Source of the DNA: Paraburkholderia sp. D15
GTDB lineage: Bacteria > Pseudomonadota > Gammaproteobacteria > Burkholderiales > Burkholderiaceae
Assembly: GCF_029910215.1 (NCBI RefSeq)
Contig: NZ_CP110396.1
Coordinates: 2,232,001-2,296,000 of the forward strand
Reading direction: 5' to 3'
Length of the DNA: 64,000 nt
Shown here in pieces: positions 3,832-58,061 of the stretch; positions within the stretch are counted from its first letter, which is position 1; every line of letters begins with the position of its first letter. A program made the position numbers and the translations under genes. The notes under the pieces are model-generated. The model worked only from the letters and a program-made list of their open reading frames with translations. It did no database searches and was not told the origin of the DNA.

Positions 3832-4983
3832 CTAGCCCGCCGCCGCATCAGGCGATGGTGACGGCGGCGATAGCGACGGCGGCGGCGCCACGGCACCCGC
3901 CGCCGTTTCCGTTTGCCGCGACCGGTCGCCCGCTTCCGCGATCACGCGATGCACGAAGCGCAGCTTGTCCACCACCGGCGCGGCGAGCGTAAACGGATAA
4001 CCGTCCGGCATGCCGAGACTCCGGTTCAGGCTGTTCAACGCGTAGGTCAGCGGAAACCAGCGCTTCATCAGGTTCTCGAAGCTCGCATCCTCCACCGGCG
4101 TGCGGTCGGTCAGCGTCGGCTCGCTCGGATCGTCGGGCAGCAGCGCGACGCCGTACGACGTCGACGTATCCAGCACGTCGACGATCAGCATGTAGTGCGC
4201 CCACGTCTCCGCCCAGTCTTCCCATGGATGCATCGTCGCGTACGCGCTGATGTACGACGCCTGCCAGTCGGCCGGCGCACCTTCCGCGTAATAGCGGTTC
4301 AGCGCTTCGCCATAGTCCGCGCTTTCGTCGCCGAACAGTGCGCGGAAGCGCTCCAGTCGCCGCGGCTCGTGTTCCACCAGCTGGCTGAAATAGTAGTGGC
4401 CGGTCTCATGACGGAAGTGACCGAGCAGCGTCCGGTACGGCTCGCCCATCGCGGTGCGGACCTGCTCGCGGTGCGCGTCGTCCGCCTCGGCGATGTTCAG
4501 CGTGATCAGCCCGTTGTCGTGTCCGGTCATCACATGGGCGCCATCGCCGCCGTCTTCGAGAAACTCGAATGCGAGACCATGCTCGGGGTCGGTCTGCCGC
4601 GACGGCACGTCGAGTCCGAATTCCGCCAGCGTGTACAGCAGGCGTCGCTTCGCCACTTCCAGCCGGTACCAGTAGAGCCGGTTGTCCGGCGCGCCCAGAT
4701 TCGGAATGGTCAGCGTCAGCTGGCACGAGCGGCACAACGTGTCCGGCGAATCGGCCGGGATCATCCAGTTGCAGACGTTTTCGACCGCGTAGTTATGGCA
4801 CTGGCGGAACAGCTTGCCTTGCACGCCGGGATGCAGGCTGCGCCAGGCGCCGTCGCCGGCGTCCTCGAACGCGCTGATCTCCCTGACCTCCGGCACATAG
4901 CCGAGCAGCGATTCGCACCGCTCGCAGCGCACGTTTTCAAAGAAGACCAGATGCGAGCAGTGATTGCAGTGGAAGGTTTTCAT
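3832..4983 (-). CDS. Zinc-binding metallopeptidase with double zinc ribbon
   Basis: A 383-residue cytoplasmic protein. The N-terminus carries C6-x2-C9 and C20-x2-C23, and a second set C62, C71, C84 and C87, which look like rubredoxin-type zinc knuckles. The catalytic motif HETGH is at about 192-196, within the phrase GHFRHETGHYYF, followed by the conserved WEDWAETWAHYM region. This is the putative zinc-binding metallopeptidase family that is often encoded beside the ATP-grasp/transglutaminase clusters. The start at 4983 (MKTFHC) is preferred over upstream frames because the zinc knuckle begins at once. The C-terminus is a Pro/Ser-rich tail. It is transcribed divergently from the transglutaminase-DUF2126 gene 334 bases away. 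Substrate unknown. Confidence 0.8.
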   Translation of the reverse strand: MKTFHCNHCSHLVFFENVRCERCESLLGYVPEVREISAFEDAGDGAWRSLHPGVQGKLFRQCHNYAVENVCNWMIPADSPDTLCRSCQLTLTIPNLGAPDNRLYWYRLEVAKRRLLYTLAEFGLDVPSRQTDPEHGLAFEFLEDGGDGAHVMTGHDNGLITLNIAEADDAHREQVRTAMGEPYRTLLGHFRHETGHYYFSQLVEHEPRRLERFRALFGDESADYGEALNRYYAEGAPADWQASYISAYATMHPWEDWAETWAHYMLIVDVLDTSTSYGVALLPDDPSEPTLTDRTPVEDASFENLMKRWFPLTYALNSLNRSLGMPDGYPFTLAAPVVDKLRFVHRVIAEAGDRSRQTETAAGAVAPPPSLSPPSPSPDAAAG

Positions 4984-5317
4984 CGACAAAGCCCGGTAGG
5001 TGGATGACGCGAGGAGCGACGTGTCGCCGCAATCTTTATGCCGCATTTGCCAGACGTCACCGGTTTAACGCACATTACATGCATGATCGTGGACGACGCT
5101 GCGCCGCTTTGGTGCGCGTCGCGGTAGAAGGCAATCGAAAGGCGGGGCGATCCCGAGGCGCGCGGCTCGCGTGTCCGGACGGCCGGCGGACGCGACACAC
5201 CGGATGACGGGCGATGTGTCGCGCACGGCGGGCGGTTCGCGGGATTCGTCGCGTCTGTCCCTAAAACGGCATGAAGCTTGCTTTTTGGCGGGCTGCCCCT
5301 TCGTCCAGGAGTCCGGT
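4984..5317. other. Divergent promoter region
   Basis: 334 bases between the divergent zinc-peptidase and transglutaminase-DUF2126 genes. It must hold both promoters, but I see no convincing -35/-10 pair or palindrome. The ribosome binding site AGGAG (5307-5311) for the GTG start at 5318 is clear. Confidence 0.4.
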
Positions 5318-8300
5318 GTGTCCATACGCGTCGCGTTGCATCACGTCACTCATTACCGCTACGACAGGCTGGTCGCGCTGTCGCCCCAGGTCGTGCGCCT
5401 GAGGCCTGCACCGCATTGCCGCACGCCGATCCACGCGTACTCGATGCGGGTCGAACCGGCGCAGCACTTCATCAACTGGCAGCAGGACGCGTTCGCCAAC
5501 TATCAGGCGCGGCTCGTGTTTCCCGAGAAGACGCGGGAATTCAAGGTGAAGGTGGACCTCGTCGCCGAAATGGCCGTGTACAACCCGTTCGACTTCTTTC
5601 TCGAACCGTCGGCCGAGCAATGTCCGTTCGATTACGCGCCGGGCCTCGCGCAGGAGCTTGCACCGTACCTCGTCAAGCGGCCGATGACGCCGCGCTTCGC
5701 CGAATTCGTCGCGAGCATCGACCGCACGCCGACCGGCACCGCCGACTTTCTCGTCGCGCTCAACCAGCGGCTGCAGCGCGAGATCCGCTATCTGATCCGG
5801 ATGGAGCCAGGCGTGCAGACGCCCGAGGAAACGCTGGTGAACGGCTCCGGCTCGTGCCGCGATTCGGGCTGGCTGCTGGTCGAAACGCTGCGGCAGCTCG
5901 GGCTCGCGGCGCGCTTCGTGTCGGGCTATCTGCTGCAGCTCGCGCCGGACGTCAAATCGATCGACGGCCCGAGCGGCACCGAAGTCGACTTCACCGACCT
6001 GCATGCGTGGTGCGAGGTGTATCTGCCGGGCGCCGGCTGGATCGGCCTCGATCCGACTTCCGGGCTGCTGGCCGGCGAAGGCCATATCCCCGTCGCGTGC
6101 ACGCCGGAACCGGGCAGCGCGGCGCCGATCTCCGGCGCGGTCGACGAATCCGAGGTCGAGTTCGAGCACACCATGTCGATCGAGCGCGTGCTGGAGACGC
6201 CGCGCGTCACGCGGCCGTTCAGCGAAGCGGTGTGGGCCGACGTGCTGACGATGGGCGCCGAAGTCGACCGTCAGCTCGACGCGATGGACGTGCGCCTGAC
6301 CATGGGCGGCGAGCCGACCTTCGTGTCGGTGCGCGACCGTGACGCGCCCGAATGGAACACCGACGCGCTGGGGCCCACCAAGCGCGGCTATGCGGTCGCG
6401 CTGATGGACAAGCTGCGTGCGCGGTACGGCGCGAACGGCTTCCTGCACATCGGCCAGGGCAAGTGGTATCCGGGCGAGCAACTGCCGCGCTGGGCGATGT
6501 CGTTGTACTGGCGCGCGGACGGCGAGCCGTGCTGGCAGGACCCCGCGCTGTTCGCCGACGAGCGCGATCCCGGCGCGTACACCGCCGCCGACGCGCAACG
6601 CTTTCTCGCGCATCTCGCGAACAAGCTGGACCTCGACACGGACTGCATCCAGCCCGGCTTCGAGGATGTCTGGTATTACCTGTGGCGCGAGCGCCGTCTG
6701 CCGGTCAACGTCGATCCGCTCGATGCGCGCCTCGACGACGAACTCGAACGCGTGCGCCTGCGCCGCGTGTTCGACTCGGGTCTGGGCAGCGCGACCGGGT
6801 TCGTGCTGCCGCTCGCGCGCGAACGCGACGTGCCGCACGCGGCGCCGAAATGGGTCAGCGGCCGCTGGTTCTTCCGCGACGAACGCATGTTCCTGATTCC
6901 CGGCGATTCGCCGATGGGGTATCGCCTGCCGCTCGATTCGCTGCCGTGGGTGTCGAAGACCGACTATCCGTATCAACACGCGCACGATCCGTTCGCGCCG
7001 CCGGTGCCGTTGCGCTCCGCCGCGCAGTTGCGCCTGCAGTACGACAGCGACGCGGGCGCGCTGAGCCCCAGCGCCGCGCGACGGGCGGCGGCCTTGTCTT
7101 CGTCGGCCGCGGATCTGTTGAGCGGCATGGCGGGCAGCGGCGTGCTGGCGTTCGCGCCGCAAGCCGGCGACGAAGCGCCGCCGGCGCGTGGGCAGTCGTC
7201 GACGGCAACGCTGCGCACGGCGATCTGTGTCGAGGCGCGCGACCCGAAACGCGCGGCCGGTCCGAAGGCCGAGACCGATGCGTTCGGCAGCGGCCGCTCG
7301 CTGCTGCACGTGTTCATGCCGCCGCTCACCGAACTCGACGATTATCTCGACCTGCTCGCGGCCGTCGAGGCAAGCGCCGCCGACCTGCACATGAAGGTCG
7401 TGCTCGAAGGCTATCCGCCGCCGCGCGATCCGCGTCTGAAGCTGCTGCAGGTCACGCCCGACCCCGGCGTGATCGAAGTGAACATTCATCCGGCGGCGAA
7501 CTGGGGGCAACTGGTCGACCATACCGAGTACCTGTACGAGTCCGCCGCGAAAAGCTATCTGAGCAGCGAGAAGTTCATGACCGACGGCCGCCACACCGGC
7601 ACCGGCGGCGGCAATCACTTCGTGCTCGGCGGGGCGACACCGGCCGACAGTCCGTTTCTGCGGCGGCCCGATCTGCTCGCGAGTCTGATCGCGTACTGGC
7701 ACAACCATCCTTCGCTGTCGTATCTGTTTTCCGGCCTTTTCATCGGACCGACCAGCCAGGCGCCGCGTATCGACGAGGCGCGCAACGACCAGGTCTACGA
7801 ACTCGAAATCGCGTTCCGCGAGTTGCAGCGGCAGATCGATCTGCTCGGCGGCCGCGACAGCGCGAACCTGCCGGCGTGGATGATCGACCGCGCGCTGCGC
7901 AATATCCTGATCGACGTGACCGGCAATACGCACCGCGCCGAGTTCTGTATCGACAAGCTGTATTCGCCCGACGGTCCGACCGGCCGCCTCGGCCTGCTCG
8001 AATTGCGCGGCTTCGAAATGCCGCCGCACGCGCGCATGAGCCTCGTGCAGCAACTGCTGTTGCGTGCGCTGGTGGCGCGCTTCTGGCGCACGCCGTACAC
8101 GCAGCGCCTCACGCGCTGGGGCACCGAACTGCACGACCGCTTTCTGCTCGGCAGCTTCGTGAAGATGGATTTCGACGACGTGCTCGACGACCTGAACCGC
8201 GCGGGTTTCGCGTTCGACGGCGAATGGTTCGCGCCGCACTTCGAATTCCGCTTCCCGCTGGTCGGCGAGACCACGGTGGACGGCGTGTCGCTGAGCGTGC

Positions 8301-8791
8301 GCAATGCGCTCGAACCGTGGCACGTGATGGGCGAGGAGGGCTCGGCGGGCGGCACGGTGCGCTACGTGGATTCGTCGGTGGAACGGCTCGAAGTGCGCGC
8401 GCTCGGTCTGAACGACAACCGCCACGTGCTGACCGTCAATGGCGTGCCGGTGCCGTTGCAGCCGACCGGGCGCGTCAGCGAATACGTGGCCGGCGTGCGG
8501 TTTCGCGCGTGGTCGCAGCCATCGGCGCTGCATCCCACCATCGGCGTGGACGCGCCGCTCACGTTCGATCTGATCGACACGTGGACCGGCCGCTCGCTGG
8601 GCGGTTGCCAGTATCATGTCGCTCATCCGGGCGGGCGCAATTACCAGACCTTCCCGGTCAATGCGTACGAGGCGGAAAGCCGGCGGCGCGCGCGCTTCTT
8701 CGCGACGGGCCATACGCCCGGGCCGCTCGCGGCCGGCGCGCCGCAACGCAGCCTGGAGTTTCCGTTCACGCTGGATCTGCGCTACTGGTAA
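5318..8791 (+). CDS. Transglutaminase-like domain fused to DUF2126
   Basis: A 1157-residue cytoplasmic protein. Residues 1 to about 300 are a transglutaminase-like cysteine peptidase domain with an N-terminal beta region (VALHHVTHYRYD) and the triad Cys180 (SGSCRDSGW), His229 (DLHAWCEVY) and Asp245 (GLDPTSG). From about 325 (LTMGGEPTFVS) to the end is DUF2126, a family proposed to be a circularly permuted glutamine-synthetase-like ligase; conserved blocks include TGGGNHFVLGG and LELRGFEMPPHARMS. The start is GTG 5318 because AGGAG (5307-5311) sits at the right distance; an upstream frame to 5171 lacks a site. The next gene begins 32 bases after the stop. The likely role is to make or cut amide bonds on an unknown peptide or protein. 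Confidence 0.85.
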   Translation: MSIRVALHHVTHYRYDRLVALSPQVVRLRPAPHCRTPIHAYSMRVEPAQHFINWQQDAFANYQARLVFPEKTREFKVKVDLVAEMAVYNPFDFFLEPSAEQCPFDYAPGLAQELAPYLVKRPMTPRFAEFVASIDRTPTGTADFLVALNQRLQREIRYLIRMEPGVQTPEETLVNGSGSCRDSGWLLVETLRQLGLAARFVSGYLLQLAPDVKSIDGPSGTEVDFTDLHAWCEVYLPGAGWIGLDPTSGLLAGEGHIPVACTPEPGSAAPISGAVDESEVEFEHTMSIERVLETPRVTRPFSEAVWADVLTMGAEVDRQLDAMDVRLTMGGEPTFVSVRDRDAPEWNTDALGPTKRGYAVALMDKLRARYGANGFLHIGQGKWYPGEQLPRWAMSLYWRADGEPCWQDPALFADERDPGAYTAADAQRFLAHLANKLDLDTDCIQPGFEDVWYYLWRERRLPVNVDPLDARLDDELERVRLRRVFDSGLGSATGFVLPLARERDVPHAAPKWVSGRWFFRDERMFLIPGDSPMGYRLPLDSLPWVSKTDYPYQHAHDPFAPPVPLRSAAQLRLQYDSDAGALSPSAARRAAALSSSAADLLSGMAGSGVLAFAPQAGDEAPPARGQSSTATLRTAICVEARDPKRAAGPKAETDAFGSGRSLLHVFMPPLTELDDYLDLLAAVEASAADLHMKVVLEGYPPPRDPRLKLLQVTPDPGVIEVNIHPAANWGQLVDHTEYLYESAAKSYLSSEKFMTDGRHTGTGGGNHFVLGGATPADSPFLRRPDLLASLIAYWHNHPSLSYLFSGLFIGPTSQAPRIDEARNDQVYELEIAFRELQRQIDLLGGRDSANLPAWMIDRALRNILIDVTGNTHRAEFCIDKLYSPDGPTGRLGLLELRGFEMPPHARMSLVQQLLLRALVARFWRTPYTQRLTRWGTELHDRFLLGSFVKMDFDDVLDDLNRAGFAFDGEWFAPHFEFRFPLVGETTVDGVSLSVRNALEPWHVMGEEGSAGGTVRYVDSSVERLEVRALGLNDNRHVLTVNGVPVPLQPTGRVSEYVAGVRFRAWSQPSALHPTIGVDAPLTFDLIDTWTGRSLGGCQYHVAHPGGRNYQTFPVNAYEAESRRRARFFATGHTPGPLAAGAPQRSLEFPFTLDLRYW

Positions 8792-8823
8792 AACGCGGCA
8801 CGCTCTCATACAACGACACGACC

Positions 8824-11529
8824 TTGGCCTTTCAATCGACTTTTCCCTTCGAGACGTCCGCGGCCCGCGCGGACGCTTCATCCCTGTTGCGCCTGCTGCC
8901 GGCCTACGAGGGACATTGGGACGAGTTGCGCGACGTGTCGGGCGCGTTGCGCGAGCCGTGGCGGCAGTTCTTCGAGCGGCTCGGCGAAGACGGCATCGCG
9001 CGGCTCGACGATCATCGCGCGTCGGTCGCGCAGCAGATCCGCGACAACGACATCAGCTACAACGTCTACGCGGATAACGGCGAACCGCGGCCGTGGGCGC
9101 TCGACCTGCTGCCGTTCCTGATCAGCGAGGACGAATGGGCGCACATCGAGCGCGGCGTGACGCAGCGCGCCCATCTGCTCAACGCGATCGTCGCCGACGT
9201 CTACGGCCCGCAGACCTTGCTGGCGCGCGGGCAGTTGCCGCCCGCGCTGGTGTTCGGCCACCCTGGCTATCTGCGTCCGGTGAAGGGTTACACGCCGCCA
9301 GGCGGTCAGTTCCTGCAGGTTGTCGCGGTGGATCTTGCGCGCACGCCGGGCGGCGACTGGACCGTGATGGCGCATCGCACCGAGGCGCCGTCGGGGCTCG
9401 GTTACGCGCTCGAAAACCGCCTGATCGTGTCGACGCTGTTCGCCGAACCGTTCCGCGCGATGCGCGTGAGCCGCCTCGCGCCGACCTATTCGCAACTGAT
9501 CGCCACGCTCGTGCAGGCCGCGCAGGCCACCATGCTGCACGACAGTCCTGGCGCCGAGACCTCGCCGCATATCGCGCTGCTGACACCGGGGCCGTTCAGC
9601 GAAACCTACTTCGAGCACGTGTTTCTCGCACGCTATCTCGGCGTCACGCTGGTGGAAGGCAAAGACCTGACCGTGCGCGACGACAAGCTGTATCTGAAGA
9701 CATTGGGCGGCCTCGAACGCGTGCACGTGGTGCTGCGCCGTCTGGACGACGCGTTCTGCGATCCGGTCGAGTTGCGCGCCGATTCGAGCATCGGCGTGCC
9801 GGGTTTGCTGCAGGTGATGCGCGCGGGCAACGTGATCGTCTCGAACGTGCCGGGCTCGGGTTTCGTCGAGTCGCCCGCAATGCACGGTTTTCTGCCCGGC
9901 ATCGCCGAAGTGCTGCTCGACGAAGATCTCGTGCTGCCCAGCGTGCCGACCTGGTGGTGTGGCGAAGCGGCCGCGCGCGAGCATGCGTTCACGCGTCTGG
10001 ACGAAGCCTTCATCGTGCCGACCTGGCCGCTCGGCGCGCGCGATGCGCCGCCCGGTATCGAGCAGGGCCGGCAAAAACTGTCGGCATGGCGCGAGCGGAT
10101 CGATGCGATGCCCGACAGCTTCACGATCCAGCAGGCGCAGCGTTTTTCCTGCACGCCGCGTTACGAGGACGGCACGATCGGGCGGCGTCCGTCGGTTCTG
10201 CGCGTGTATGCGATCGCCGACGTCAACGGCGGCTGGCATGTCATGCCGGGCGGCTTCACGCGCATGGCGGCGGAACGCCAGACCACCGTGTCGATGCAGT
10301 TCGGCGGCAGCAGCGTGGACACCTGGGTGCTGTCGAGCCAGCCGACCTCGACCTTCACGCTCCTGCCTTCGCCGATGCAGCCCGCCGACCTCGCGCGCAA
10401 GCATCGCACCGTGTCGAGCCGCGCGGCGGAGAACCTGTTCTGGGCCGGACGTTACGGCGAGCGCGCGGAAAACAATGTGCGTCTGCTGCGGCTGATTCTC
10501 GGCTCGCTGGAAGGCAACGACGCCGACGCGATGTTTCCCACGCTGGTCGAACTCGCGCTGTATTGCGGGCTCGTGCAGAGCGGCGACATGGCCGCGCCGC
10601 ATTCGCCGCAGGCGTTCGAACGCGCGCTGGTCGCGAATCTGAGCGAGAGCACCGGCGCGGCGAGCATCGGTCAGAATCTGACGTGTCAGGCGCGCTCGAA
10701 CGGCGAGGTGCGGGGACGCTTGTCGAACGATCATTGGCGCACGATTCTGGCCGCGCGCAACGATTTCCGCGATGCGTTGCAGACGTTGATGCCGGGCGCG
10801 GGGGCTCACCTGGGGCCGGGCGGCGGCGTGGCTGCAAATGGCGCGAACGGTGTAGGCGAAGCGAGCGGTGCGGGCGCCACGAACGGCGCCCATGGTCTTT
10901 CGGGGCGCGCCGACCGCAGCGAGCGCTACAACCGCTATGACCGCGTCACGCTGATGAACGCGCTCGAACACCTGTCGGTGCAGCTATCGGCGATCAGCGG
11001 CGCGCAAGGCGACCGCATGACGCGCGACGAAGCCTGGCGTCTGCTGTTCGTCGGCCGGCATATCGAACGCGTATCGGCGATGACGTCGATCCTGCGCGTC
11101 GTCGCCGACAAAGGGCAACTCGGCACGCCCGCAGGCTTCGATCTGCTGCTGCAACTCTTCGACAGCACGCTGACGTATCGCTCGCTGTATCCGGGCCGTT
11201 TCGAAGTGCCGGCCCTGCTCGATCTGCTGGTGTGTGAACCGACCAACCCGCGCGGCATCTACGGCGTCTACGCGCGGCTGCGCAAGAAGCTCGACGAGAT
11301 CTCGGCCGCGGCGGGCAGCGTGCGGCATCGGCCGTTCGCGGAATTGATGCCGCCGGCGGTCTCGTTGCCGACGCTGGAAAAACTCTGCACCGTCGATGAA
11401 AACGGCGCGTACAGCGATCTGATCGCGGTATGCGATCAGATCGGCGGTTTCGTCGGCGCCGCCGCGCATGAGATCAGCGCGCGTTACTTCAGCCACGCGA
11501 GCACGGTCGCCTTGCAGGTGTGGTCATGA
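8824..11529 (+). CDS. Circularly permuted ATP-grasp fused to alpha-E domain
   Basis: A 901-residue fusion. Residues 1 to about 500 match the circularly permuted ATP-grasp family (phrases SYNVYADNGEPRPW, LTPGPFSETYFEHVFLARYLG and LVEGKDLTVRDDKLY), an ATP-dependent carboxylate-amine ligase type. From about 530 the alpha-E helical domain begins (SRAAENLFWAGRYGERAENN) and runs to the end. It is interrupted by a Gly/Ala/Asn-rich linker at about 656-704 (10791-10935). In the second cluster of this window the same two domains are separate genes. No ATG fits; TTG 8824 is chosen as the first start after the preceding gene, without a good ribosome binding site. The stop overlaps the next start (ATGA), so the proteins are translationally coupled. 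Confidence 0.8.
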   Translation: MAFQSTFPFETSAARADASSLLRLLPAYEGHWDELRDVSGALREPWRQFFERLGEDGIARLDDHRASVAQQIRDNDISYNVYADNGEPRPWALDLLPFLISEDEWAHIERGVTQRAHLLNAIVADVYGPQTLLARGQLPPALVFGHPGYLRPVKGYTPPGGQFLQVVAVDLARTPGGDWTVMAHRTEAPSGLGYALENRLIVSTLFAEPFRAMRVSRLAPTYSQLIATLVQAAQATMLHDSPGAETSPHIALLTPGPFSETYFEHVFLARYLGVTLVEGKDLTVRDDKLYLKTLGGLERVHVVLRRLDDAFCDPVELRADSSIGVPGLLQVMRAGNVIVSNVPGSGFVESPAMHGFLPGIAEVLLDEDLVLPSVPTWWCGEAAAREHAFTRLDEAFIVPTWPLGARDAPPGIEQGRQKLSAWRERIDAMPDSFTIQQAQRFSCTPRYEDGTIGRRPSVLRVYAIADVNGGWHVMPGGFTRMAAERQTTVSMQFGGSSVDTWVLSSQPTSTFTLLPSPMQPADLARKHRTVSSRAAENLFWAGRYGERAENNVRLLRLILGSLEGNDADAMFPTLVELALYCGLVQSGDMAAPHSPQAFERALVANLSESTGAASIGQNLTCQARSNGEVRGRLSNDHWRTILAARNDFRDALQTLMPGAGAHLGPGGGVAANGANGVGEASGAGATNGAHGLSGRADRSERYNRYDRVTLMNALEHLSVQLSAISGAQGDRMTRDEAWRLLFVGRHIERVSAMTSILRVVADKGQLGTPAGFDLLLQLFDSTLTYRSLYPGRFEVPALLDLLVCEPTNPRGIYGVYARLRKKLDEISAAAGSVRHRPFAELMPPAVSLPTLEKLCTVDENGAYSDLIAVCDQIGGFVGAAAHEISARYFSHASTVALQVWS

Positions 11530-12416
11530 AGAACGCGCCGACCGTGCTGTCCGTCTCGCATCGCACGACCTATCACTACTCGACCTACGTCGAGACCGCG
11601 CAGCATCTCGCGACGATCCGGCCGATCGCCTGCGCGTGGCAACGCGTGGTGTCGCATAGCGAAAAGATCGAGCCGCGGCCGTCGTATCTGAACAGCCGCA
11701 CCGACGCATTCGGCAACGACGTGCTGTATTTCGCGCTCGACGCGCCGCACGAACGCCTGCAACTGGTCAGCGAAACCACGGTCGCGCTGACGCCGCGCTG
11801 GACCGATCTCGATCCGGAGGCGACGCCCGCGTGGGAAGAGGTCGCCGATGCGCTGCGCTTTCGCGTCGGCGGTCAGTTCCGGCCGGAAGCGGAGTTCTGT
11901 TTCGCGTCGCCGAACATCGTGCCGCGGCCGTCGCTGCGCGAATACGCCGCGCCGAGTTTTCCGGCGGGCATGCCGGTCGTCGCGGGTGCGATCGACCTGA
12001 TGCATCGCATTCATCGCGACTTCGCATACAAACCGTCGGCGACGATGTTCGATACGCCCGCCGAACGCGCGTTCGAGTTGAAGAGCGGCGTGTGCCAGGA
12101 TTTCGCGCAGGTGATGATCGGCTGTCTGCGCTCGCTGGGTTTGCCCGCGCGCTATGTGAGCGGCTATCTGCGCAACGATCCGCCGCCGGGGCAGCCGCGC
12201 CTGATCGGCGCGGACGCGTCGCATGCGTGGGTATCGGTGCATTGTCCCGACAGCGGCTGGATCGATCTCGATCCGACCAACGACGTGCTCGCGGATACCG
12301 ACCACGTGACGCTCGCGATCGGCCGCGATTACAGCGACGTGTCGCTCCTGCGCGGCATGATTCTCGGCGGCGGCGCGCACCGTGTCGAAGTCGGCGTGAC
12401 GGTGCTCGCGCTGTAG
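11526..12416 (+). CDS. Transglutaminase-like cysteine peptidase
   Basis: A 296-residue cytoplasmic protein of the bacterial transglutaminase-like family. An N-terminal beta domain (VLSVSHRTTYHYS) precedes the core with Cys190 (SGVCQDFAQ), His233 (ASHAWVSVH) and Asp249 (IDLDPTND). The phrase ARYVSGYL and a C-terminal GRDYSDVSLLRG are typical. Such proteins more often cut or transfer isopeptide bonds than cross-link proteins. Start ATG 11526 overlaps the stop of the ATP-grasp/alpha-E gene (ATGA); a GTG two codons upstream is possible. It ends the first ligase cluster. A paralogue lies at 56187-56987. Confidence 0.85.
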   Translation: MKNAPTVLSVSHRTTYHYSTYVETAQHLATIRPIACAWQRVVSHSEKIEPRPSYLNSRTDAFGNDVLYFALDAPHERLQLVSETTVALTPRWTDLDPEATPAWEEVADALRFRVGGQFRPEAEFCFASPNIVPRPSLREYAAPSFPAGMPVVAGAIDLMHRIHRDFAYKPSATMFDTPAERAFELKSGVCQDFAQVMIGCLRSLGLPARYVSGYLRNDPPPGQPRLIGADASHAWVSVHCPDSGWIDLDPTNDVLADTDHVTLAIGRDYSDVSLLRGMILGGGAHRVEVGVTVLAL

Positions 12417-14199: not shown

Positions 14200-14216
14200 C
14201 AGGTTGAGTCAACATC

Positions 14217-38704: not shown

Positions 38705-38973
38705 TGAGTACGTCTCTGATTATTGTGGTGAATCTTTGGCTGGCGGTTAGCCAGTCCACGCTTATCGCCTGTTCTGCTGATGGCAGGACGAGCGAATCCA
38801 TCGGCGCGATTGGCGGTCGCGCCGGGAAATCGGTTTTTTTATCGGTGGAAGCTTTATCTGTTGCGGTCTTGCGTTGGCGCTGTATGACGGAATCGGATGC
38901 GGTGAAGTCGAGTTGATGCCGGTGCCTGAATGCAGGCGGTTTGATTGCGGTGGATAGAATGACGGGTATTGCT

Positions 38974-41003
<2,030 letters not shown>

Positions 41004-41004
41004 G

Positions 41005-41919: not shown

Positions 41920-41922
41920 GGA

Positions 41923-42861: not shown

Positions 42862-42877
42862 GACGGTGCTCCCGCGC

Positions 42878-44497: not shown

Positions 44498-44639
44498 CGG
44501 TTGAAGTCGCAGGAAAGGTCGAGAGAAGAACGCTGACGCCGGAGCGCCCGGTTTATCCGCGGTGCCCGGGCCAGGGCGGCCCTTGTTGCTTGTCCGGCAT
44601 ACAGGATTCCTTACATGTTGTAATGCAGGCAATCCCTGG

Positions 44640-44652
44640 CCGGTTCAACCGG
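44640..44652. promoter_or_regulatory. Inverted repeat upstream of peptide importer
   Basis: CCGGTT-C-AACCGG is a perfect inverted repeat with 6-base arms between the XRE-cupin gene stop and the OppA-like start. Loop too small for a hairpin terminator, so it suggests a protein site, perhaps for the adjacent regulator. Confidence 0.3.
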
Positions 44653-44668
44653 AAAAGATGCCTGCTTT

Positions 44669-45241: not shown

Positions 45242-46015
45242 AGCAGGAGGAAATTAGCCCGTCAAAATTTGTTTGATATAAGTAAATATGGTTTGATTAC
45301 GGTCCGGACTGGGCTGCGGGCCGTTTGAGCCCCCGGAAATGCTAAAGACCGCAATTTGGAGACAACGCTCTATGTTGCCAGAACTGAAAGTCCGGAAGCC
45401 ATATTGACCGGATTATTGTGAGAAACGGCAGCAACTCGGCGGTAAAAGTTGCTGTTTGCACGATGATACGTGCAGATATGCCATCCAGGTGTCAGGGAAC
45501 GTCGGCCGGAGAGATTACCGAATCTTTCGGGGGCGGATGGAGGGCTTGACAACGCGAAAGTGGGAAATGAATCGGAAGGGTGTCGTTTAGGTGGTTTCCC
45601 TGAGTGACGCGAGACGTTTCTCTTCGGAGAATCGCCCCGCCTGGCGGATCGGCTCCGCGCATGCGCATCGCATGCAGAGACCGGCCGCCACTTAACTTTC
45701 CGCGCGTAGCGATCCTGCGCGGCGGAGCACTGACCGGCACGTTCCATCCGAACGGCGTCCGGCGTAAGGACTTGACCATCACTGCCGACCTTTTTCCGCC
45801 GCAGGCGCACGGCCTGCCGCCGCCCGACGCGGCCGCCGCGTGTGAACCCTCGGCGCGTCGCGCGCCCGAGCTTTGCCTCGCGATGCGCGTCACTTTCATT
45901 CCCCGCTTGTCCCGATTGCCCTGACTGTTTTGCCGGCCTGCTGGTCGAGGTCCTGTTTTTCGCGCCGCGCGGCACTTTCGCGCGGCGTCGCAACCGTTTG
46001 AACTAGAGGTACACG
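45242..46015. other. Divergent intergenic region XRE/POT genes
   Basis: 774 bases. The left 350 bases are AT-richer and hold the XRE promoter side with repeated GTTTGAT (45271-45297); the right part is GC-rich. A weak hairpin (45429-45453) was seen without clear function. The open frames here lack ribosome binding sites and family marks. No gene is called. Confidence 0.45.
45271..45297. promoter_or_regulatory. Direct repeat GTTTGAT spaced by two turns
   Basis: GTTTGAT occurs at 45271-45277 and 45291-45297, exactly 20 bases apart, in the AT-rich region upstream of the XRE-cupin gene. Such spacing places both copies on one face of the helix. Candidate autoregulatory site. Confidence 0.35.
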
Positions 46016-47557: not shown

Positions 47558-47649
47558 ATGACGCCGGCGTGCCGGCACGCCGGCACGTAGACCTGTCGAC
47601 CTCTGGCAAGGCGGCGCACCTGCGCTGCCTTGCCGACAGCAACGCACCC

Positions 47650-47689
47650 TGCAAAACGGCGCGCCTCGAACGAGGCGCGCCGTTTTGCA
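47650..47689. terminator. Large hairpin after POT gene
   Basis: A perfect 19-base-pair stem (47650-47668 with 47671-47689) with a two-base turn; the outer arms have A4 and T4 tracts, so it works as a terminator on the plus strand and possibly also on the minus strand. Confidence 0.75.
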
Positions 47690-47805
47690 TTGATAAGCCG
47701 CGACCTCGTTCCGGGAATTGCAGCTTCCTCCCGCGGAGGTAAGCTTAGGGCCGTCACTGGTCTTTCGACCTGATCATTTGCCGGATAGTTGAGGTAGCCA
47801 ATCGG

Positions 47806-49284
47806 ATGGACATCCATATCGTCGTCGAAGGACATCACGACCTGTCCGGACAGATCTATCGGCAACTGCGCGCGGGCATTCTCGAAGGGCGTCTTGCCGG
47901 CGGCACGCGCTTGCCGTCCACGCGCGATCTCGCGACGCAACTGGGCGTGTCGCGCAAGACCACGCTCGACGTGTTCGAGCGCCTGCTCGCCGAGGGCTAT
48001 CTCAGCGCCCGCGCGGGCTCGGGCACCTTCGTCGCGGAGGGTCTCGAACGCCTGCCGGCAGCGAGTTCCGCGCACGCGCGCGAGGTCGACTCCGCGCGCG
48101 AACACGCGAAGCCTGGCGCACGCAGCGCGGCGCGCGCGCAGCCGCTCTGGGACGAGATGCCGGACATCCTGCCGCTGCCACGCGCGACGGTGCCGTCGCC
48201 GCTCGATTTCGTCGGCGGCGCGGTCGACAAGTCGCTGTTTCCGTTCGACGTGTGGCGCCGTTGCGTGAATCACGCGCTGCGCGCGCAGGCGCGCAGTCCC
48301 GGCACTTATCGCGAGGCGGGCGGCGAACAGGAACTGCGTCTCGCGATCTCGCGTTACCTCGCGTTCAACCGCGCGGTGTCGAGCAACTGGGACGACGTGA
48401 TCGTCACGCAGGGCGCGCAGAACGCGCTCGATCTTATCGCGCGCATCACGTTTCGTCCCGGCGATGTCGCGGCGATCGAAGACCCCGGGTATCCGCCGGT
48501 GCATGCGTGCTTCCAGGCGGCCGGCGCGCGCGTCGTGCCGGTGCCGGTGGATAGCGAAGGCTTGATCGTTGCCCGGCTGCCGGACAACGCGCGGCTCGTG
48601 TATGTGACGCCGTCGCATCAGTTTCCGCTCGGCATGCCGATGAGTCTGGAACGGCGCGTCGAGTTGCTCGAATGGGCGCAGAAGCGCGGCGCGGTGATCA
48701 TCGAGGACGATTACGACTGCGAGTACCGCTTCGAAGGCCGGCCGATGGAGCCGCTGAAGAGTCTCGATCGCGCGGGACTCGTCGCATACGTGGGCACGTT
48801 TTCCAAGACCATCTTTCCGGAGTTGCGCATGGGCTACGTGGTGCCGCCCGCGTCGCTGCGCGGCGCGCTGCTCAAGGCGCGCCAGATCGTCGATGGACAT
48901 GGCTGCACGCTCACGCAGACCGCGCTCGCGTCGTTCATGCTCAACGGCGATTTCGCCAAGCATCTGCGGCGCATGCACAAGACCTACGCGGCGCGTCGCG
49001 CGATGCTGCTGCATCACTTGCAGGGCGATCTCGCACGCTGGTTCGAACCGATCGTGCCGACGGCGGGCATTCACATGGCGGCGCACCTGAAAGCGCCGTT
49101 GAGCGAGGCAGCAGTAGTCGCCGCGGCGCGCAGCGAAGCCGTCGGCATCTATGGGCTCGCGCCGTTTTATCTGCGCGCGAAACCGCGGGCGGGACTGATC
49201 TTCGGCTACGGCAGCATCGCGGTCGAACACGTCGATGCGTCGCTCGCGAAGCTGGCCGAGGTGCTGCCGCGCATCGCGCGTTGA
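47806..49284 (+). CDS. MocR/PdxR-type GntR regulator with aminotransferase domain
   Basis: A 492-residue regulator. Residues about 10-80 are a GntR winged helix (GQIYRQLRAGILEGRLAGGTRLPSTRDLA, SRKTTLDVFERLLAEGYL). From about 115 follows a fold-type I aminotransferase domain with PLP-binding Lys334 (GTFSKTIFPELRMGYV) and EDDYDCEYRFEG. Such proteins sense PLP or an amino acid as aldimine. It stands alone between the POT gene and the nucleotidase; its target is not evident here. Confidence 0.85.
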   Translation: MDIHIVVEGHHDLSGQIYRQLRAGILEGRLAGGTRLPSTRDLATQLGVSRKTTLDVFERLLAEGYLSARAGSGTFVAEGLERLPAASSAHAREVDSAREHAKPGARSAARAQPLWDEMPDILPLPRATVPSPLDFVGGAVDKSLFPFDVWRRCVNHALRAQARSPGTYREAGGEQELRLAISRYLAFNRAVSSNWDDVIVTQGAQNALDLIARITFRPGDVAAIEDPGYPPVHACFQAAGARVVPVPVDSEGLIVARLPDNARLVYVTPSHQFPLGMPMSLERRVELLEWAQKRGAVIIEDDYDCEYRFEGRPMEPLKSLDRAGLVAYVGTFSKTIFPELRMGYVVPPASLRGALLKARQIVDGHGCTLTQTALASFMLNGDFAKHLRRMHKTYAARRAMLLHHLQGDLARWFEPIVPTAGIHMAAHLKAPLSEAAVVAAARSEAVGIYGLAPFYLRAKPRAGLIFGYGSIAVEHVDASLAKLAEVLPRIAR

Positions 49285-53276: not shown

Positions 53277-53709
53277 ATGCGTTTGGAGCGTTGGCGGGTT
53301 TGGACATCGGGCTTAAACATCGGGTTTAAACATCGTTAACGTTTCATCCATTCCGCGGTACAGGTTGTTCGAAATCCCCGTGAGTGCAAACTCACGGGGA
53401 TTTTTTCATGGGCGCGACGCGCCGCTCGCCGGCCTTCGTCCGCATTCGGGAACGTTCGATCGCACCCATCGCGCACCGCGAATCGAACGACACACGCACC
53501 GCCATGCTGCGGATGCACCGTACTAGCGCATCATGAGCCGCCGCAGTACGATGGCAGCGAAGCCGTGCCGGTCGGGATGCGCTGTTAGCGTGCACGTATC
53601 GTGGGTTGTGCGCGAAAAGCTCAATGGCATAGCGCTTGCTTGATCGATTGTCGAACACCGAATGCGCAGCGCATTCGCCTTCTATCCGACAACAAGAGCG
53701 GGGCGTGAC
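53277..53709. other. Intergenic region HU/ATP-grasp genes
   Basis: 433 bases. Holds the HU terminator (53374-53406). The right part should contain the promoter of the ATP-grasp operon, but none is obvious. Open frames on the minus strand here are Arg-rich shadows. Confidence 0.45.
53374..53406 (+). terminator. Terminator of HU-like gene
   Basis: 11-base-pair stem including the A-T closing pair (53374-53384 with 53391-53401), six-base loop and T6 run. Confidence 0.9.
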
Positions 53710-55119
53710 ATGCGATGCTATGACGAGATGCGTCATCATGACGATGCCGTGCGGCCACACTACGCGCGCTTTGAGCGGTGGCTGGTGAAGCAGGGCAACG
53801 AGGCGATCGCACGCAAGCGTGCGGAAGCCGACCTGCTGTTTCGCCGGGTCGGCATCACCTTCGCGGTGAACGGCGACCTGTCCGGCACCGAACGGCTGAT
53901 TCCCTTCGACCTGATTCCGCGCATCATTCCGCGCGGCGAATGGCAAACGCTCGAAGCGGGTTTACGTCAGCGCGTGCAGGCGCTCAATCTGTTTATCCAC
54001 GACGTCTATCACGATCGCAACATCGTGCGCGCCGGCATCGTGCCGGCCGAGCAGGTCTATACCAACGCGCAGTATCGTCCCGAGATGCAGGGCGTGAATG
54101 TGCCGCTCGGTGTTTACGCGCATATCGCCGGTGTCGATGTGGTGCGCGCGGGCGACGAGGGCGAGTTCTACGTGCTCGAAGACAACTTGCGCGTGCCCTC
54201 CGGCGTCTCCTACATGCTCGAAAACCGCAAGATGATGATGCGGTTGTTTCCCGAGCTGTTCGTGCAGAACCGCATCGCGCCGGTCGCGCATTATCCCGAC
54301 CTGTTGCTCGATACGCTGCGCTCGGTCGCGCCGGAAGGCGTCGACGATCCGGTGGTCGTGGTGCTCACGCCGGGCATGTACAACTCCGCGTATTTCGAGC
54401 ACACCTTCCTCGCGCAGCAGATGGGCGTCGAACTCGTCGAAGGCAAGGACCTGTTCGTCGACGACAACTATGTGTTCATGCGTACCACGCAAGGACCGAA
54501 ACGCGTCGACGTGATCTACCGTCGCGTCGACGACGATTTTCTCGACCCGCTCGCGTTCCGCAACGATTCGGCGCTCGGCGTGCCGGGCTTGCTGACCGCG
54601 TATCGCGCGGGCCGCGTCGCGCTCGCGAACGCGATGGGCACCGGCATCGCCGACGACAAATCGATCTATCCGTATGTGCCGGAAATGATCGAGTTCTATC
54701 TCGGCGAGAAGCCGATTCTCAACAACGTCCCCACGTTTCAGTGCCGCAAACCCGACGATCTGGCGTACACGCTCGCGCATCTGCCGGAGCTGGTCGTGAA
54801 GGAAGTGCATGGCGCCGGCGGCTACGGGATGCTGGTGGGACCGGCCTCGACGAAGGCCGAAATCGAGTCGTTCCGCGAGCGGCTGATCGCGCGGCCGGCG
54901 GGTTATATCGCGCAGCCCACGCTCGCGCTTTCCGCGTGTCCGACCTTCGTCGAAGCCGGCATCGCGCCGCGCCATATCGATCTGCGGCCGTTCGTGCTGT
55001 CCGGCAAGACCGTCACGATGGTGGCTGGCGGCCTCACGCGGGTCGCGCTGCAGGAGGGTTCGCTCGTGGTCAACTCGTCGCAGGGAGGCGGGACCAAGGA
55101 CACCTGGATGGTCGACTGA
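53710..55119 (+). CDS. Circularly permuted ATP-grasp family protein
   Basis: A 469-residue paralogue of the first half of the fusion at 8824-11529. Shared marks include VLTPGMYNSAYFEHTFLAQQMGVELVEGKDLFVDD and ALGVPGLLTAYRAGRVALANAMG, and the C-terminal SLVVNSSQGGGTKDTWMVD typical of the free-standing form. It should ligate a carboxylate to an amine with ATP. The start ATG 53710 is chosen because the family N-terminus begins soon after; ATG 53728 is an alternative. It begins the second ligase cluster and is followed by the alpha-E gene. Confidence 0.83.
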   Translation: MRCYDEMRHHDDAVRPHYARFERWLVKQGNEAIARKRAEADLLFRRVGITFAVNGDLSGTERLIPFDLIPRIIPRGEWQTLEAGLRQRVQALNLFIHDVYHDRNIVRAGIVPAEQVYTNAQYRPEMQGVNVPLGVYAHIAGVDVVRAGDEGEFYVLEDNLRVPSGVSYMLENRKMMMRLFPELFVQNRIAPVAHYPDLLLDTLRSVAPEGVDDPVVVVLTPGMYNSAYFEHTFLAQQMGVELVEGKDLFVDDNYVFMRTTQGPKRVDVIYRRVDDDFLDPLAFRNDSALGVPGLLTAYRAGRVALANAMGTGIADDKSIYPYVPEMIEFYLGEKPILNNVPTFQCRKPDDLAYTLAHLPELVVKEVHGAGGYGMLVGPASTKAEIESFRERLIARPAGYIAQPTLALSACPTFVEAGIAPRHIDLRPFVLSGKTVTMVAGGLTRVALQEGSLVVNSSQGGGTKDTWMVD

Positions 55120-55222
55120 AGCGGTTGTCCGCGCAGACCCGTTACGTGCTTCGATAGGTTCGACGCGGGTCGCTTGTCATCAGCTAACTCATCAGCTCAT
55201 TCATCAGATACGGAACGCCGTC

Positions 55223-56173
55223 ATGCTAAGCCGCACCGCCGATCACCTCTTCTGGATGGCCCGCTACATGGAGCGCGCGGAGAACACCGCCCGCATGCTC
55301 GACATCAACCTGAAAGCGCTGCTATTGCCGCAGACGCCCGAGCAGGAAGCGCGCGCGCAACGTTCGGTGCTGCGCATCTCCGAACTCGAAACCGCGTTCG
55401 CGCAACGCTACGACGAACCGACGCGCGAACACGTGCTCGATTTCATGGTGGCGGACGCCAACAATCCGTCGAGTATTCACTCGTGTCTGCAGGCCGCGCG
55501 CGAAAACGCCCGCGCGGTGCGCGGCACGCTGACCACCGAATGGTGGGAAACCATTAACGATACGTGGCTCGAATTCAACGAACGGATCGCGTCGGGGCAG
55601 GCGGCCGGCAATCCGGGCGCGCTGTTCGAGTGGGTGAAGTTCCGCTCGCATCTGTCGCGCGGCGTGACGATCGGCACCGCGTTGCAGGACGACGCGTTTT
55701 TCTTCACGCAGCTCGGCACCTATCTCGAACGGGCCGACAACACCGCGCGGATTCTCGACGTGCGCTTCGCGGATGTCGAGCCGAATTCACGCGATGCCGC
55801 GCGCCAGCTCGAAGACTTCTACTACTGGACGTCGATCCTGAGTTCGGTGTCGGCGCTGGAGATCTATCGCAAGGTTTATCGCGACGTGGTCACGCCCGCG
55901 CGCGTGGTCGAGTTGATGATCCTGAACCAGCAGATGCCGCGCTCGCTGCTCGCCTCGCTCGACGGGGTCTGCGCGAATCTCGCGATGTTGCGCACCTCGG
56001 GCTCGAACCAGACCGAACGTTTCGCCGGCAAACTGCGCGCCGAACTCGTGTACTCCGACATCCGGCAGATTTTCGAAGCCGGCCTGCACGCCTATCTGAC
56101 GCAGTTCCTGGCTCGCGTGTTCGAGCTCGGCAATCTGGTCGCGCGTACCTATCTGATGCTGCCCGTTGCCTGA
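55223..56173 (+). CDS. Alpha-E domain protein
   Basis: A 316-residue all-helical protein. It opens with MLSRTADHLFWMARYMERAENTARML, the family signature, which also appears inside the fusion at 8824-11529. The internal arrangement of Arg/Glu-rich helices is conserved. Alpha-E proteins always go with the permuted ATP-grasp and are proposed to hold the substrate or partner. The mechanism is unknown. Starts 104 bases after the ATP-grasp gene. Confidence 0.85.
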   Translation: MLSRTADHLFWMARYMERAENTARMLDINLKALLLPQTPEQEARAQRSVLRISELETAFAQRYDEPTREHVLDFMVADANNPSSIHSCLQAARENARAVRGTLTTEWWETINDTWLEFNERIASGQAAGNPGALFEWVKFRSHLSRGVTIGTALQDDAFFFTQLGTYLERADNTARILDVRFADVEPNSRDAARQLEDFYYWTSILSSVSALEIYRKVYRDVVTPARVVELMILNQQMPRSLLASLDGVCANLAMLRTSGSNQTERFAGKLRAELVYSDIRQIFEAGLHAYLTQFLARVFELGNLVARTYLMLPVA

Positions 56174-56186
56174 CGGAGTTCTCTTT

Positions 56187-56987
56187 ATGTTTCTGACGAT
56201 CCGCCACGACACGTCCTATCGCTACGAAGCGACGGTTCACTATTCGATCCAGCAGCTACGTCTGACGCCCGCGAGCGGCGCCTCGCAGGTGGTGCGGCGC
56301 TGGAGCATCGACGCGCCGGGCAAACTCGACGCCACCTTCGACGCGTACGGCAACGTGCTGCATACGCTGGTCATCAACAAGCCGCACAACGAAATCCGTC
56401 TACATGTGTCCGGCGAAGTCGACACGCTGCCGCTGATCGACGGTCATTTGCCCGACGGCGTCGGTCCGATCCCGCTCGAACATTTCACCTGCTCGACGCG
56501 GCTGACCGAGGCCGATGCGGCGATTCGCGAGCTGGCCGCGACGGTGCCGGCGCTCGCCAGTGCATCGAATCTGATCGCCTTGTCCGAGCAGATCGTGCAG
56601 CGCGTGAAGTACAACCCGGGCGTCACCGAGGTCACCAGCACGGCCGGCCAGGCGCTCGCGCTCGGCAACGGCGTGTGTCAGGACCACGCGCATCTGATGC
56701 TCGCCTGCTGCCGCGCGCGTGGCGTTCCGGCGCGCTACGTGAGCGGCTATATCGAACCCGGCGAGGTCGAACATGCCGCGAGTCATGCGTGGGTGGACGT
56801 GTGGCTCGAAGGCAAGGGCTGGATTTCCGTCGACGTCACGCATGCCGCGTTTGCGAGCGAGATCTATTGCCGGCTCGCCGTCGCACGCGATTACGAGGCC
56901 GCCGCGCCGGTACGCGGACGGCGTGTTGGGGGGCTGGAGGAACAACTGAAGGTGTCGGTGACGGTCAGTTCGCAGATGCCGCAATAG
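56187..56987 (+). CDS. Transglutaminase-like cysteine peptidase
   Basis: A 266-residue protein of the family. N-terminal beta region (FLTIRHDTSYRYEATVHYS) and core triad Cys164 (NGVCQDHAHLM), His200 (ASHAWVDVW) and Asp216 (ISVDVTHA). It lacks the usual D-P-T after the Asp. The start at ATG 56187 follows GACGGAG; the frame from 56166 overlaps the alpha-E gene. It belongs to the second ligase cluster. Confidence 0.87.
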   Translation: MFLTIRHDTSYRYEATVHYSIQQLRLTPASGASQVVRRWSIDAPGKLDATFDAYGNVLHTLVINKPHNEIRLHVSGEVDTLPLIDGHLPDGVGPIPLEHFTCSTRLTEADAAIRELAATVPALASASNLIALSEQIVQRVKYNPGVTEVTSTAGQALALGNGVCQDHAHLMLACCRARGVPARYVSGYIEPGEVEHAASHAWVDVWLEGKGWISVDVTHAAFASEIYCRLAVARDYEAAAPVRGRRVGGLEEQLKVSVTVSSQMPQ

Positions 56988-57188
56988 CGGCATGGCGTCA
57001 TCGCGCAGCGATGCAGTCGCGTATGGCACGCGGCCGGGCATGAGCATGAGCATGAGCGCCCCGGCAGCGAGCGTTAGCCCACATTGCCATTCAGTTTGCC
57101 CGCGCCGCCGCCGTAATACGGAAGAGCGGTGCGTGCGCGCCGCATTACAATAGCGCCGTTCAGCAGCCTCCAGCGGGATCTTTTCCTC

Positions 57189-58061
57189 ATGACTTACTGT
57201 GTCGCGATGACCGTCGACGACGGCCTCGTGTTCCTCTCCGATACGCGCACCAATGCGGGCGTCGATCACATCAGCACCGCGCGCAAGATGTCGGTGTTCG
57301 AGCAACCCGGCGAGCGCGTGCTCGTGCTGCTGGGCGCGGGCAATCTGTCGCTCACGCAGGCCGTGCTGCACGAATTGTCCGAACCCACCGATCCTACCCA
57401 GCCGACGCTGTGGAATGCCCCCACCATGGCCGACGCCGCGCGTGTGATCGGCCGCGCGGTGCGGTGCGTGCATCAGCGCGAGGCGGAGGCGTTGCAGGAA
57501 TTCGGCGTCGATTTCAATTGCAGCTTCATTCTCGGCGGGCAGATTGCGGGCAGCCGGCCGCGTCTTTTCATGATTTACGCGGCGGGGAATTTCATCGAAG
57601 CGTCGGCGGTGAATCCGTATTTCCAGATTGGCGAAGCCAAATACGGCAAGCCGATCATCGACCGGGTGCTGACGCCGTCCACGCCGCTCGACGAAGCGGC
57701 CAAGTGCGCGCTGATCTCGATGGATTCGACGCTGCGCTCGAATCTGTCGGTCGGCTTGCCGCTCGATCTGCTGGTCTACGAGAAGGATTCGCTGCGCGTC
57801 ACGCGCTTCGTCTCGATCGATCACGACAACGCGTACTTCGAGATGATTCATCGCACCTGGGGCGAGCGGCTGCGTCAGGTGTTCGGCGAGATTCCCGATC
57901 CGGACTGGCGGGAGACGACTGGCGCGCCGGTGTTGCGTCAGGAGCGTGCGCTGGTGCTGCATCGCGCGCCGGTCGGCGCGGATGGCGTCGAGCATGAATT
58001 CGATGCCAAGCCCGCGCAGACGTTGGCGCAGGCTGAGAAGGGGAAAGCGCAGCGGCGCTAG
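57189..58061 (+). CDS. Anbu (proteasome-like) peptidase
   Basis: A 290-residue Ntn-hydrolase of the Anbu family, ancestral-type proteasome relatives. After removal of Met1 the N-terminal Thr is the nucleophile (MTYCVAMTVDDGLVFLSDTRT); the Asp17 position (LSDTRTN) and a Lys at position 32 (ISTARKMSVF) match the proteasome triad Thr1/Asp17/Lys33. The C-terminal extension of about 40 residues is charged. It sits at the end of the second ligase cluster, about 200 bases after the transglutaminase gene, with a terminator after it. Anbu assembles in rings or helices; its substrate is unknown. Confidence 0.85.
   Translation: MTYCVAMTVDDGLVFLSDTRTNAGVDHISTARKMSVFEQPGERVLVLLGAGNLSLTQAVLHELSEPTDPTQPTLWNAPTMADAARVIGRAVRCVHQREAEALQEFGVDFNCSFILGGQIAGSRPRLFMIYAAGNFIEASAVNPYFQIGEAKYGKPIIDRVLTPSTPLDEAAKCALISMDSTLRSNLSVGLPLDLLVYEKDSLRVTRFVSIDHDNAYFEMIHRTWGERLRQVFGEIPDPDWRETTGAPVLRQERALVLHRAPVGADGVEHEFDAKPAQTLAQAEKGKAQRR

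What the first reader, a model, noticed from the sequence alone, without database searches (positions are those of the whole stretch)
53710..58061. Second cluster: ATP-grasp, alpha-E, transglutaminase and Anbu protease
The same families recur 41 kb away, with the ATP-grasp and alpha-E domains as separate genes and a proteasome-like Anbu peptidase (Thr1, Asp17 and Lys at position 32) at the end of the operon. Together the two loci divide the components: DUF2126 and the zinc peptidase in one, Anbu in the other. That both lie in one 64-kb window suggests two paralogous systems acting on different substrates, or one system split in two with shared partners.
Basis: partly seen in the sequence, partly recalled or inferred. 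Interest (0 to 1): 0.85.

Follow-up and report, generated by a model that had tools for sequence, protein, structure and literature searches.

The report
Split nitrogen-starvation ligase system with Anbu
This is the known four-gene Anbu operon (a bacterial proteasome relative with peptide-bond-making partners); comparison with other genomes suggests that it and a second cluster 41 kb away are two halves of one modular system used in nitrogen shortage, with the proteasome relative given its own promoter.

Summary
[quoted passage not shown] The other locus holds DUF2126, an ATP-grasp/alpha-E fusion and a transglutaminase, with a divergent zinc peptidase.

Both readings offered are partly right. 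Trees show fused and stand-alone ATP-grasp/alpha-E to be old, separate paralogues. Yet the loci behave as modules of one system. The only two matches to a sigma-54 pattern in the window precede these two operons, and such sites recur in relatives (ATP-grasp 43 of 73, alpha-E 0 of 79). All 60 DUF2126 genomes searched outside the family have a stand-alone alpha-E; it lies beside Anbu, DUF2126, both (8 clusters) or neither. Where it lies at DUF2126, Anbu is often an orphan.

New detail: Anbu has its own -10-like element (22 of 31 and 15 of 26 loci; 0 of 249 other starts). Published P. putida promoter fusions agree (ATP-grasp nitrogen-responsive, Anbu constitutive); RNA-seq is mixed, and one rpoN mutant still induced the partners.

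Best reading: a nitrogen-limitation amide-ligase system with a separately expressed Anbu hydrolase; substrate unknown.

The parts
53514..53530 (+). NtrC-like palindrome TGCACCGTACTAGCGCA
   Evidence: not above chance on its own in the window; 10 of 12 consensus positions, a kind of site enriched upstream of the sigma-54 sites in relatives
53625..53640 (+). sigma-54-type -24/-12 element TGGCATAGCGCTTGCT before the Anbu operon
   Evidence: one of two matches in the window (0.13 expected)
53710..55119 (+). stand-alone circularly permuted ATP-grasp ligase
   Evidence: PF14403/PF04174; solved relative 3n6x, 5e-220
55223..56173 (+). stand-alone alpha-E; two tandem halves, each with an ER motif
   Evidence: PF04168; half against half BLASTP 1e-6; model pLDDT 90.8
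56187..56987 (+). transglutaminase-like (Cys-His-Asp triad present)
   Evidence: PF08379 and PF01841; triad
57146..57151 (+). -10-like element TACAAT, candidate promoter of Anbu alone
   Evidence: sequence; TACAAT 35-44 nt before Anbu in 17 of 31 family loci, TANAAT in 22 of 31 and 15 of 26
57189..58061 (+). Anbu, proteasome-like Ntn hydrolase
5100..5116 (+). NtrC-like palindrome TGCGCCGCTTTGGTGCG
5267..5282 (+). sigma-54-type element CGGCATGAAGCTTGCT before DUF2126
5318..8791 (+). transglutaminase + DUF2126 (putative amidoligase)
   Evidence: PF08379, PF01841, PF09899; fold matches to transglutaminases and, weakly, glutamine synthetases
8812..11529 (+). ATP-grasp/alpha-E fusion (start approximate)
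11520..12416 (+). transglutaminase-like, second copy
3832..5046 (-). zinc peptidase with zinc ribbon, divergent
   Evidence: PF15887, PF10005

Best explanation
The two loci are separated halves of one modular amide-bond system used under nitrogen limitation. When nitrogen is short, NtrC with sigma-54 RNA polymerase turns on both operons (inferred here from sequence elements; NtrC dependence is published for a homologous cluster in another species). The stand-alone ATP-grasp/alpha-E pair and the DUF2126/fusion pair would make amide or peptide bonds: the ATP-grasp fold, and the glutamine-synthetase fold that DUF2126 seems to have, belong to ligases of that kind (reaction inferred). The papain-like transglutaminase domains and the zinc peptidase would transfer or cut those bonds (inferred). 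Anbu, which in Burkholderiales has a promoter element of its own and so would already be present, would hydrolyse the product or tagged protein and return amino acids (inferred). The stand-alone pair is the shared core on which both Anbu and DUF2126 depend (inferred from co-occurrence and position).
Against: No substrate or product is known, and no chemistry was tested. In PMC7801951 an rpoN mutant still shows PP_2686-2688 up 14-20 fold (and the urt genes up 7-17 fold), which speaks against sigma-54 dependence in that strain; in its relA/spoT mutant Anbu rises 4.81 fold, and its text cites other studies in which PP_2685 is nitrogen-induced. In PMC8050072 RNA-seq (nitrate against ammonium) Anbu mRNA rose, log2 4.44. 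Y. bercovieri Anbu showed no peptidase activity and no specific binding to operon partners (PMC6376114). Anbu and DUF2126 are near-independent among alpha-E genomes (odds ratio 0.57, p 0.065). Three Anbu genomes have no alpha-E match (G243, G391, G478). TACAAT anywhere in 80 nt also precedes 2 of 28 DUF2126 genes. The -10 element is not evident before Anbu in most of the 13 loci fetched outside the family. The counts are not corrected for phylogeny. The DUF2126 model is weak (mean pLDDT 60.7), and Foldseek lists no glutamine synthetase in its 50 rows.
Confidence: 0.57

Rival explanations
1. Two independent paralogous systems. The Anbu operon and the DUF2126 operon act on different substrates and merely sit in the same nitrogen regulon; their neighbourhood in one window is a leftover of synteny.
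For: Deep split of fused and stand-alone ATP-grasp/alpha-E. Near-independence of Anbu and DUF2126 given alpha-E. Each operon has its own transglutaminase. Linkage at 18-53 kb was seen only in 7 of the 12 own-genus genomes that hold both.
Against: DUF2126 was not found without a stand-alone alpha-E in the 60 genomes searched outside the family; inside it 63 of 66 have an intact one. Clusters uniting all parts exist. Orphan Anbu genes often go with a stand-alone alpha-E placed beside DUF2126.
Confidence: 0.27
2. A proteolysis system. Anbu degrades proteins for amino-acid supply under nitrogen shortage, and the partners prepare or unfold its substrates rather than synthesise anything.
For: Split-ring structure and inhibitor binding (PMC5666114); nitrogen induction of the partners, and of Anbu in some data sets.
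Against: More than a third of the DUF2126 genomes lack Anbu (48 of 129) although the ligases stay. The Anbu promoter was constitutive in the one promoter test read. No peptidase activity was seen.
Confidence: 0.12

Closest known systems
Anbu operon (ATP-grasp, alpha-E, transglutaminase, Anbu) of Valas & Bourne 2008 and Iyer et al. 2009, as described in PMC6376114 and PMC5666114 (passages read)
   Same: Same four genes in the same order, catalytic Thr1/Asp17/Lys32
   Different: Here a candidate sigma-54 promoter leads the operon and Anbu has a -10-like element of its own; in relatives the four genes need not stay together, and Anbu may stand alone
B. cenocepacia H111 I35_5080-5083 (NtrC regulon, PMC5491218)
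   Same: ATP-grasp, alpha-E, transglutaminase and a large transglutaminase-domain protein in one NtrC-controlled cluster
   Different: There in one cluster; the like-built genus group g12 has no Anbu match in any of its 14 DUF2126 genomes (that g12 is Burkholderia is inferred); here the parts are split, with Anbu on one side
P. putida PP_2685-2688 (PMC7801951, PMC8050072)
   Same: Anbu, transglutaminase, a hypothetical protein in the place of alpha-E, and ATP-grasp in one operon; the last three nitrogen-induced
   Different: Promoter of its Anbu not compared by sequence here; induction persisted in an rpoN mutant
Pupylation and proteasome of actinobacteria (recalled, nothing read)
   Same: Glutamine-synthetase-fold ligase together with a proteasome relative, linked to nutrient limitation
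   Different: No Pup-like tag, ATPase ring or alpha subunit was sought here; the ligases include ATP-grasps
rlo operon of P. aeruginosa (PMC12239564, passages read)
   Same: ATP-grasp, transglutaminase domain and a peptidase in one operon
   Different: By that paper an inactive membrane transglutaminase, an ATP-grasp with 24% identity to RimK and a retropepsin-like protease

Membership tests
Anbu (proteasome-like family) | N-terminal Thr1 with Asp17 and Lys32/33 | tested here: met
   (69 of 70, the window's among them)
Anbu (proteasome-like family) | sequence match to solved Anbu structures | tested here: met
   five distinct sequences, 1.2e-71 to 4e-98
Anbu (proteasome-like family) | split-ring assembly and hydrolase activity | not testable with these tools
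   needs protein
Anbu operon | ATP-grasp, alpha-E, transglutaminase, Anbu in order on one strand | tested here: met
NtrC/sigma-54 regulon | -24/-12 element before the first gene, absent before inner genes | tested here: met
NtrC/sigma-54 regulon | NtrC sites upstream of the -24/-12 element | tested here: inconclusive
   enriched in the set of relatives; in the window alone not above chance
NtrC/sigma-54 regulon | NtrC- and sigma-54-dependent transcription in this organism | not testable with these tools
   only homologues, from papers: NtrC-dependent in B. cenocepacia; still induced in a P. putida rpoN mutant
Glutamine-synthetase-like amidoligase (DUF2126) | glutamine synthetase fold | tested here: inconclusive
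Transglutaminase-like (papain fold) | Cys-His-Asp triad | tested here: met
   by motif: 73 of 73 DUF2126, 47 of 48 second transglutaminases, 43 of 62 Anbu-operon transglutaminases with all three; the three window copies have it
Pupylation | Pup-like tag protein and AAA+ unfoldase | not tested
   named as analogy only

The most novel reading that the evidence does not exclude
A proteobacterial counterpart of pupylation: under nitrogen starvation two kinds of ligase (ATP-grasp/alpha-E and a glutamine-synthetase-fold DUF2126) attach an amino acid or peptide tag to proteins or peptides, and a separately expressed proteasome relative, Anbu, or the zinc peptidase and transglutaminases where Anbu is absent, removes the tag or recycles the tagged material. 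Alpha-E would be the adaptor, its two ER repeats binding ligase and substrate.
Probability: 0.12. Interest if true: 0.88.

Novelty: new member of a known kind. Interest (0 to 1): 0.5.

Why it matters
By the papers read, the function of Anbu is still open. Three points make it testable: the ligase partners look nitrogen-controlled while Anbu has a promoter element of its own; one stand-alone ATP-grasp/alpha-E pair seems to serve both Anbu and DUF2126 loci; and nature has made strains with the parts joined, split or orphaned. They say in which condition, in which strains and with which double mutants to look for a substrate.
Full report
WHAT IS THERE. Anbu starts at 57189 and has Thr1, Asp17, Lys32. 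The other locus is a transglutaminase-DUF2126 protein (5318-8791), an ATP-grasp/alpha-E fusion (to 11529) and a second transglutaminase (11520-12416), with a zinc peptidase on the other strand (3832-5046). The genome (8.3 Mb, 3 contigs) has two alpha-E matches, both here, and one proteasome-family match elsewhere, presumably HslV (in which Anbu itself did not score). The organism is close to Paraburkholderia (names of near alpha-E proteins; best named locus L114, P. polaris, 97% identity).

KNOWN OR NOT. The Anbu operon is in print: PMC6376114 and PMC5666114 (passages read) give the same four genes and cite Iyer et al. 2009 and Valas & Bourne 2008 (Iyer not held; neither read). 'Putative amidoligase enzyme' is Pfam's own description of DUF2126. 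I found no paper that joins the DUF2126 cluster to Anbu or describes a promoter element of Anbu itself in searches of the held open-access library; subscription papers, Iyer et al. included, may do so. PMC8050072 tested an Anbu promoter fragment without describing its sequence in the part read.

REGULATION. A sigma-54 pattern (YGGCAY-N5-TTGCT, recalled consensus) matches twice in 64 kb, at 5267-5282 and 53625-53640, expected 0.13: one before each operon. In the genome there are 29 matches against 15 for the reversed pattern, so single matches elsewhere mean little. In 60 loci of family relatives plus the window, a site with at least 10 of 11 positions lies within about 300 nt before the ATP-grasp in 26 of 41, DUF2126 in 10 of 28, the zinc peptidase in 4 of 21, and before alpha-E (40), transglutaminases (32 and 29), fusion (29), Anbu (31), HU (10), porin (14) and YihY (11) in none; at 9 or more of 11 YihY has 8 of 11. 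In 80 named loci, nearly all Burkholderiales (the best 80 of 588 by alpha-E similarity): ATP-grasp 43 of 73, DUF2126 18 of 36, zinc peptidase 1 of 3, YihY 1 of 4, alpha-E 0 of 79, transglutaminases 0 of 32 and 0 of 8, Anbu 0 of 26, fusion 0 of 17; resampled DNA about 1% for the first two. NtrC-like palindromes (10 or more of 12) precede 15 of 35 and 13 of 61 of those sites, 2% resampled, controls 0 of 130 and 3 of 138.

Anbu stands apart. The transglutaminase-Anbu gap has a median of 102 nt (52 pairs), against -1 for alpha-E-transglutaminase (71 pairs). A TANAAT element lies 22-50 nt before Anbu in 22 of 31 family and 15 of 26 named loci, and before 0 of 117 and 0 of 132 other starts (only genes whose alignment reaches the start were used, so just 4 + 4 Anbu-operon transglutaminases). 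TACAAT anywhere in 80 nt: Anbu 17 of 31, DUF2126 2 of 28, eight other gene kinds 0 of 117. In the window it is TACAAT at 57146-57151. It is not evident in most of the 13 Anbu loci fetched outside the family.

Published data are mostly, not wholly, in line. PMC7801951 (passages and its tables): on nitrogen limitation P. putida wild type PP_2688, 2687, 2686 rise 14.7, 11.0, 12.6 fold, PP_2685 (Anbu) 1.12; in the relA/spoT mutant 32.8, 16.6, 37.3 and 4.81; in the rpoN mutant still 19.6, 16.0, 14.2 and 1.45. The last is against sigma-54 dependence there, though the same mutant also keeps the urt genes induced 7-17 fold; its text cites other work in which PP_2685 is nitrogen-induced. PMC8050072 (section 8 read): promoter of PP_2688 induced 3.7-fold, of PP_2685 'nitrogen-agnostic'; in its RNA-seq PP_2685 is up log2 4.44, which read-through from the first promoter could explain. 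PMC5491218 (passages and table rows): the B. cenocepacia cluster depends on NtrC. PMC3597751 (passages) linked these domains to urea metabolism domains in marine metagenomes.

DESCENT. An ATP-grasp tree of 69 rows (degenerate L054 left out; the tool warns of long branches) puts all 29 fused forms on one side of a 100/100 branch. Stand-alone ATP-grasps at DUF2126 loci fall in two places: g12 (3 rows) and an 11-row group beside Anbu-operon ATP-grasps of g3 and g24. The alpha-E tree (42 rows, 4 of them fused) gives the same picture. So the two loci in the window are old paralogues; I read the two places as two joinings of the stand-alone pair with DUF2126.

CO-OCCURRENCE, FAMILY. 150 genomes (stand-alone = listed alpha-E rows at 8.3e-86 or better, the list being cut below about 1e-55): stand-alone alpha-E 114, Anbu 96, DUF2126 66. 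Anbu without an intact stand-alone alpha-E: 2 (G065, with a partial match near Anbu; G089, whose Anbu has a stop inside). DUF2126 without one: 3 (G059 and G065 with a partial match listed; G113 with three alpha-E matches of which only the fused one is listed). Of 66 DUF2126 genomes 36 have the stand-alone alpha-E within 9 kb. Of the 12 own-genus genomes with both loci (of 15 sampled), 7 keep them 18-53 kb apart. Of 97 Anbu copies 17 have no intact alpha-E within 6 kb, 10 of these in 9 genomes whose stand-alone alpha-E is at the DUF2126 locus. Leaving out G065, orphaning is 9 of 16 genomes with that long DUF2126 cluster against 0 of 27 without (p 2e-5, not corrected for phylogeny). The 7 Anbu copies without adjacent intact partners that I fetched keep their catalytic residues; beside one (L052) a remnant of the transglutaminase gene can be read in the upstream DNA (my reading).

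CO-OCCURRENCE, PHYLUM. 397 genomes: DUF2126 129, alpha-E 232, Anbu 161. DUF2126 with alpha-E 129 of 129 (the fused domain alone would give this), Anbu with alpha-E 158 of 161. Of the 123 DUF2126 genomes outside the family I picked 60, spread over 50 genera: all 60 have an alpha-E of the stand-alone score class (5e-72 or better; frames not checked one by one), and 36 have Anbu. In 32 of the 60 it lies within 15 kb of DUF2126. Eight hold DUF2126, Anbu and the stand-alone alpha-E in one cluster (G151, G159, G167, G185, G225, G305, G405, G501). In 20 of the 36 Anbu genomes no stand-alone alpha-E lies within 8 kb of Anbu, and in 11 of those 20 it is beside DUF2126. Among alpha-E genomes Anbu and DUF2126 are near-independent (odds ratio 0.57, p 0.065). 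Of the 80 named loci 26 hold Anbu, 37 DUF2126, 4 both.

MECHANISM. Shown: gene content, sequence elements, co-occurrence, partner position. Shown elsewhere: nitrogen response of homologues; phosphate release from ATP by one ATP-grasp; no peptidase activity of Anbu. Inferred: control by NtrC and sigma-54 here, ligation of an amide bond, hydrolysis by Anbu, a shared product. I put 0.57 on the modular one-system reading, 0.27 on two independent systems in one regulon, 0.12 on a mainly proteolytic role.

Noticed in passing
window 55223-56173: Alpha-E is a tandem duplication: residues 12-100 align with 164-257 at 27% identity (BLASTP 1e-6), each half with an ER motif.
   Followed up: partly
L044/L045, L050-L053, L059/L060: Anbu genes without their operon partners but with catalytic residues kept, in genomes whose stand-alone ATP-grasp/alpha-E pair sits at the DUF2126 locus.
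   Followed up: yes
L046, L048: At the DUF2126 locus a stand-alone ATP-grasp is present without an alpha-E match beside it.
   Followed up: no
L054 (G049): A second Anbu operon with a partial ATP-grasp match and fragmented alpha-E and transglutaminase matches, but an intact Anbu frame.
   Followed up: no
window 12578-16632: Downstream of the DUF2126 operon lie an IclR regulator, an amino-acid-type ABC transporter and an arginase-family gene, possible nitrogen salvage genes; the regulator and transporter are kept beside the operon in L039.
   Followed up: partly
window 37121-49284: Between the loci: OprD porin, dipeptide/oligopeptide ABC transporter genes, a POT-family peptide transporter and a MocR-type regulator.
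   Followed up: partly
genomes G243, G391, G478: Three genomes of one genus group (g67) have Anbu without any alpha-E match.
   Followed up: no
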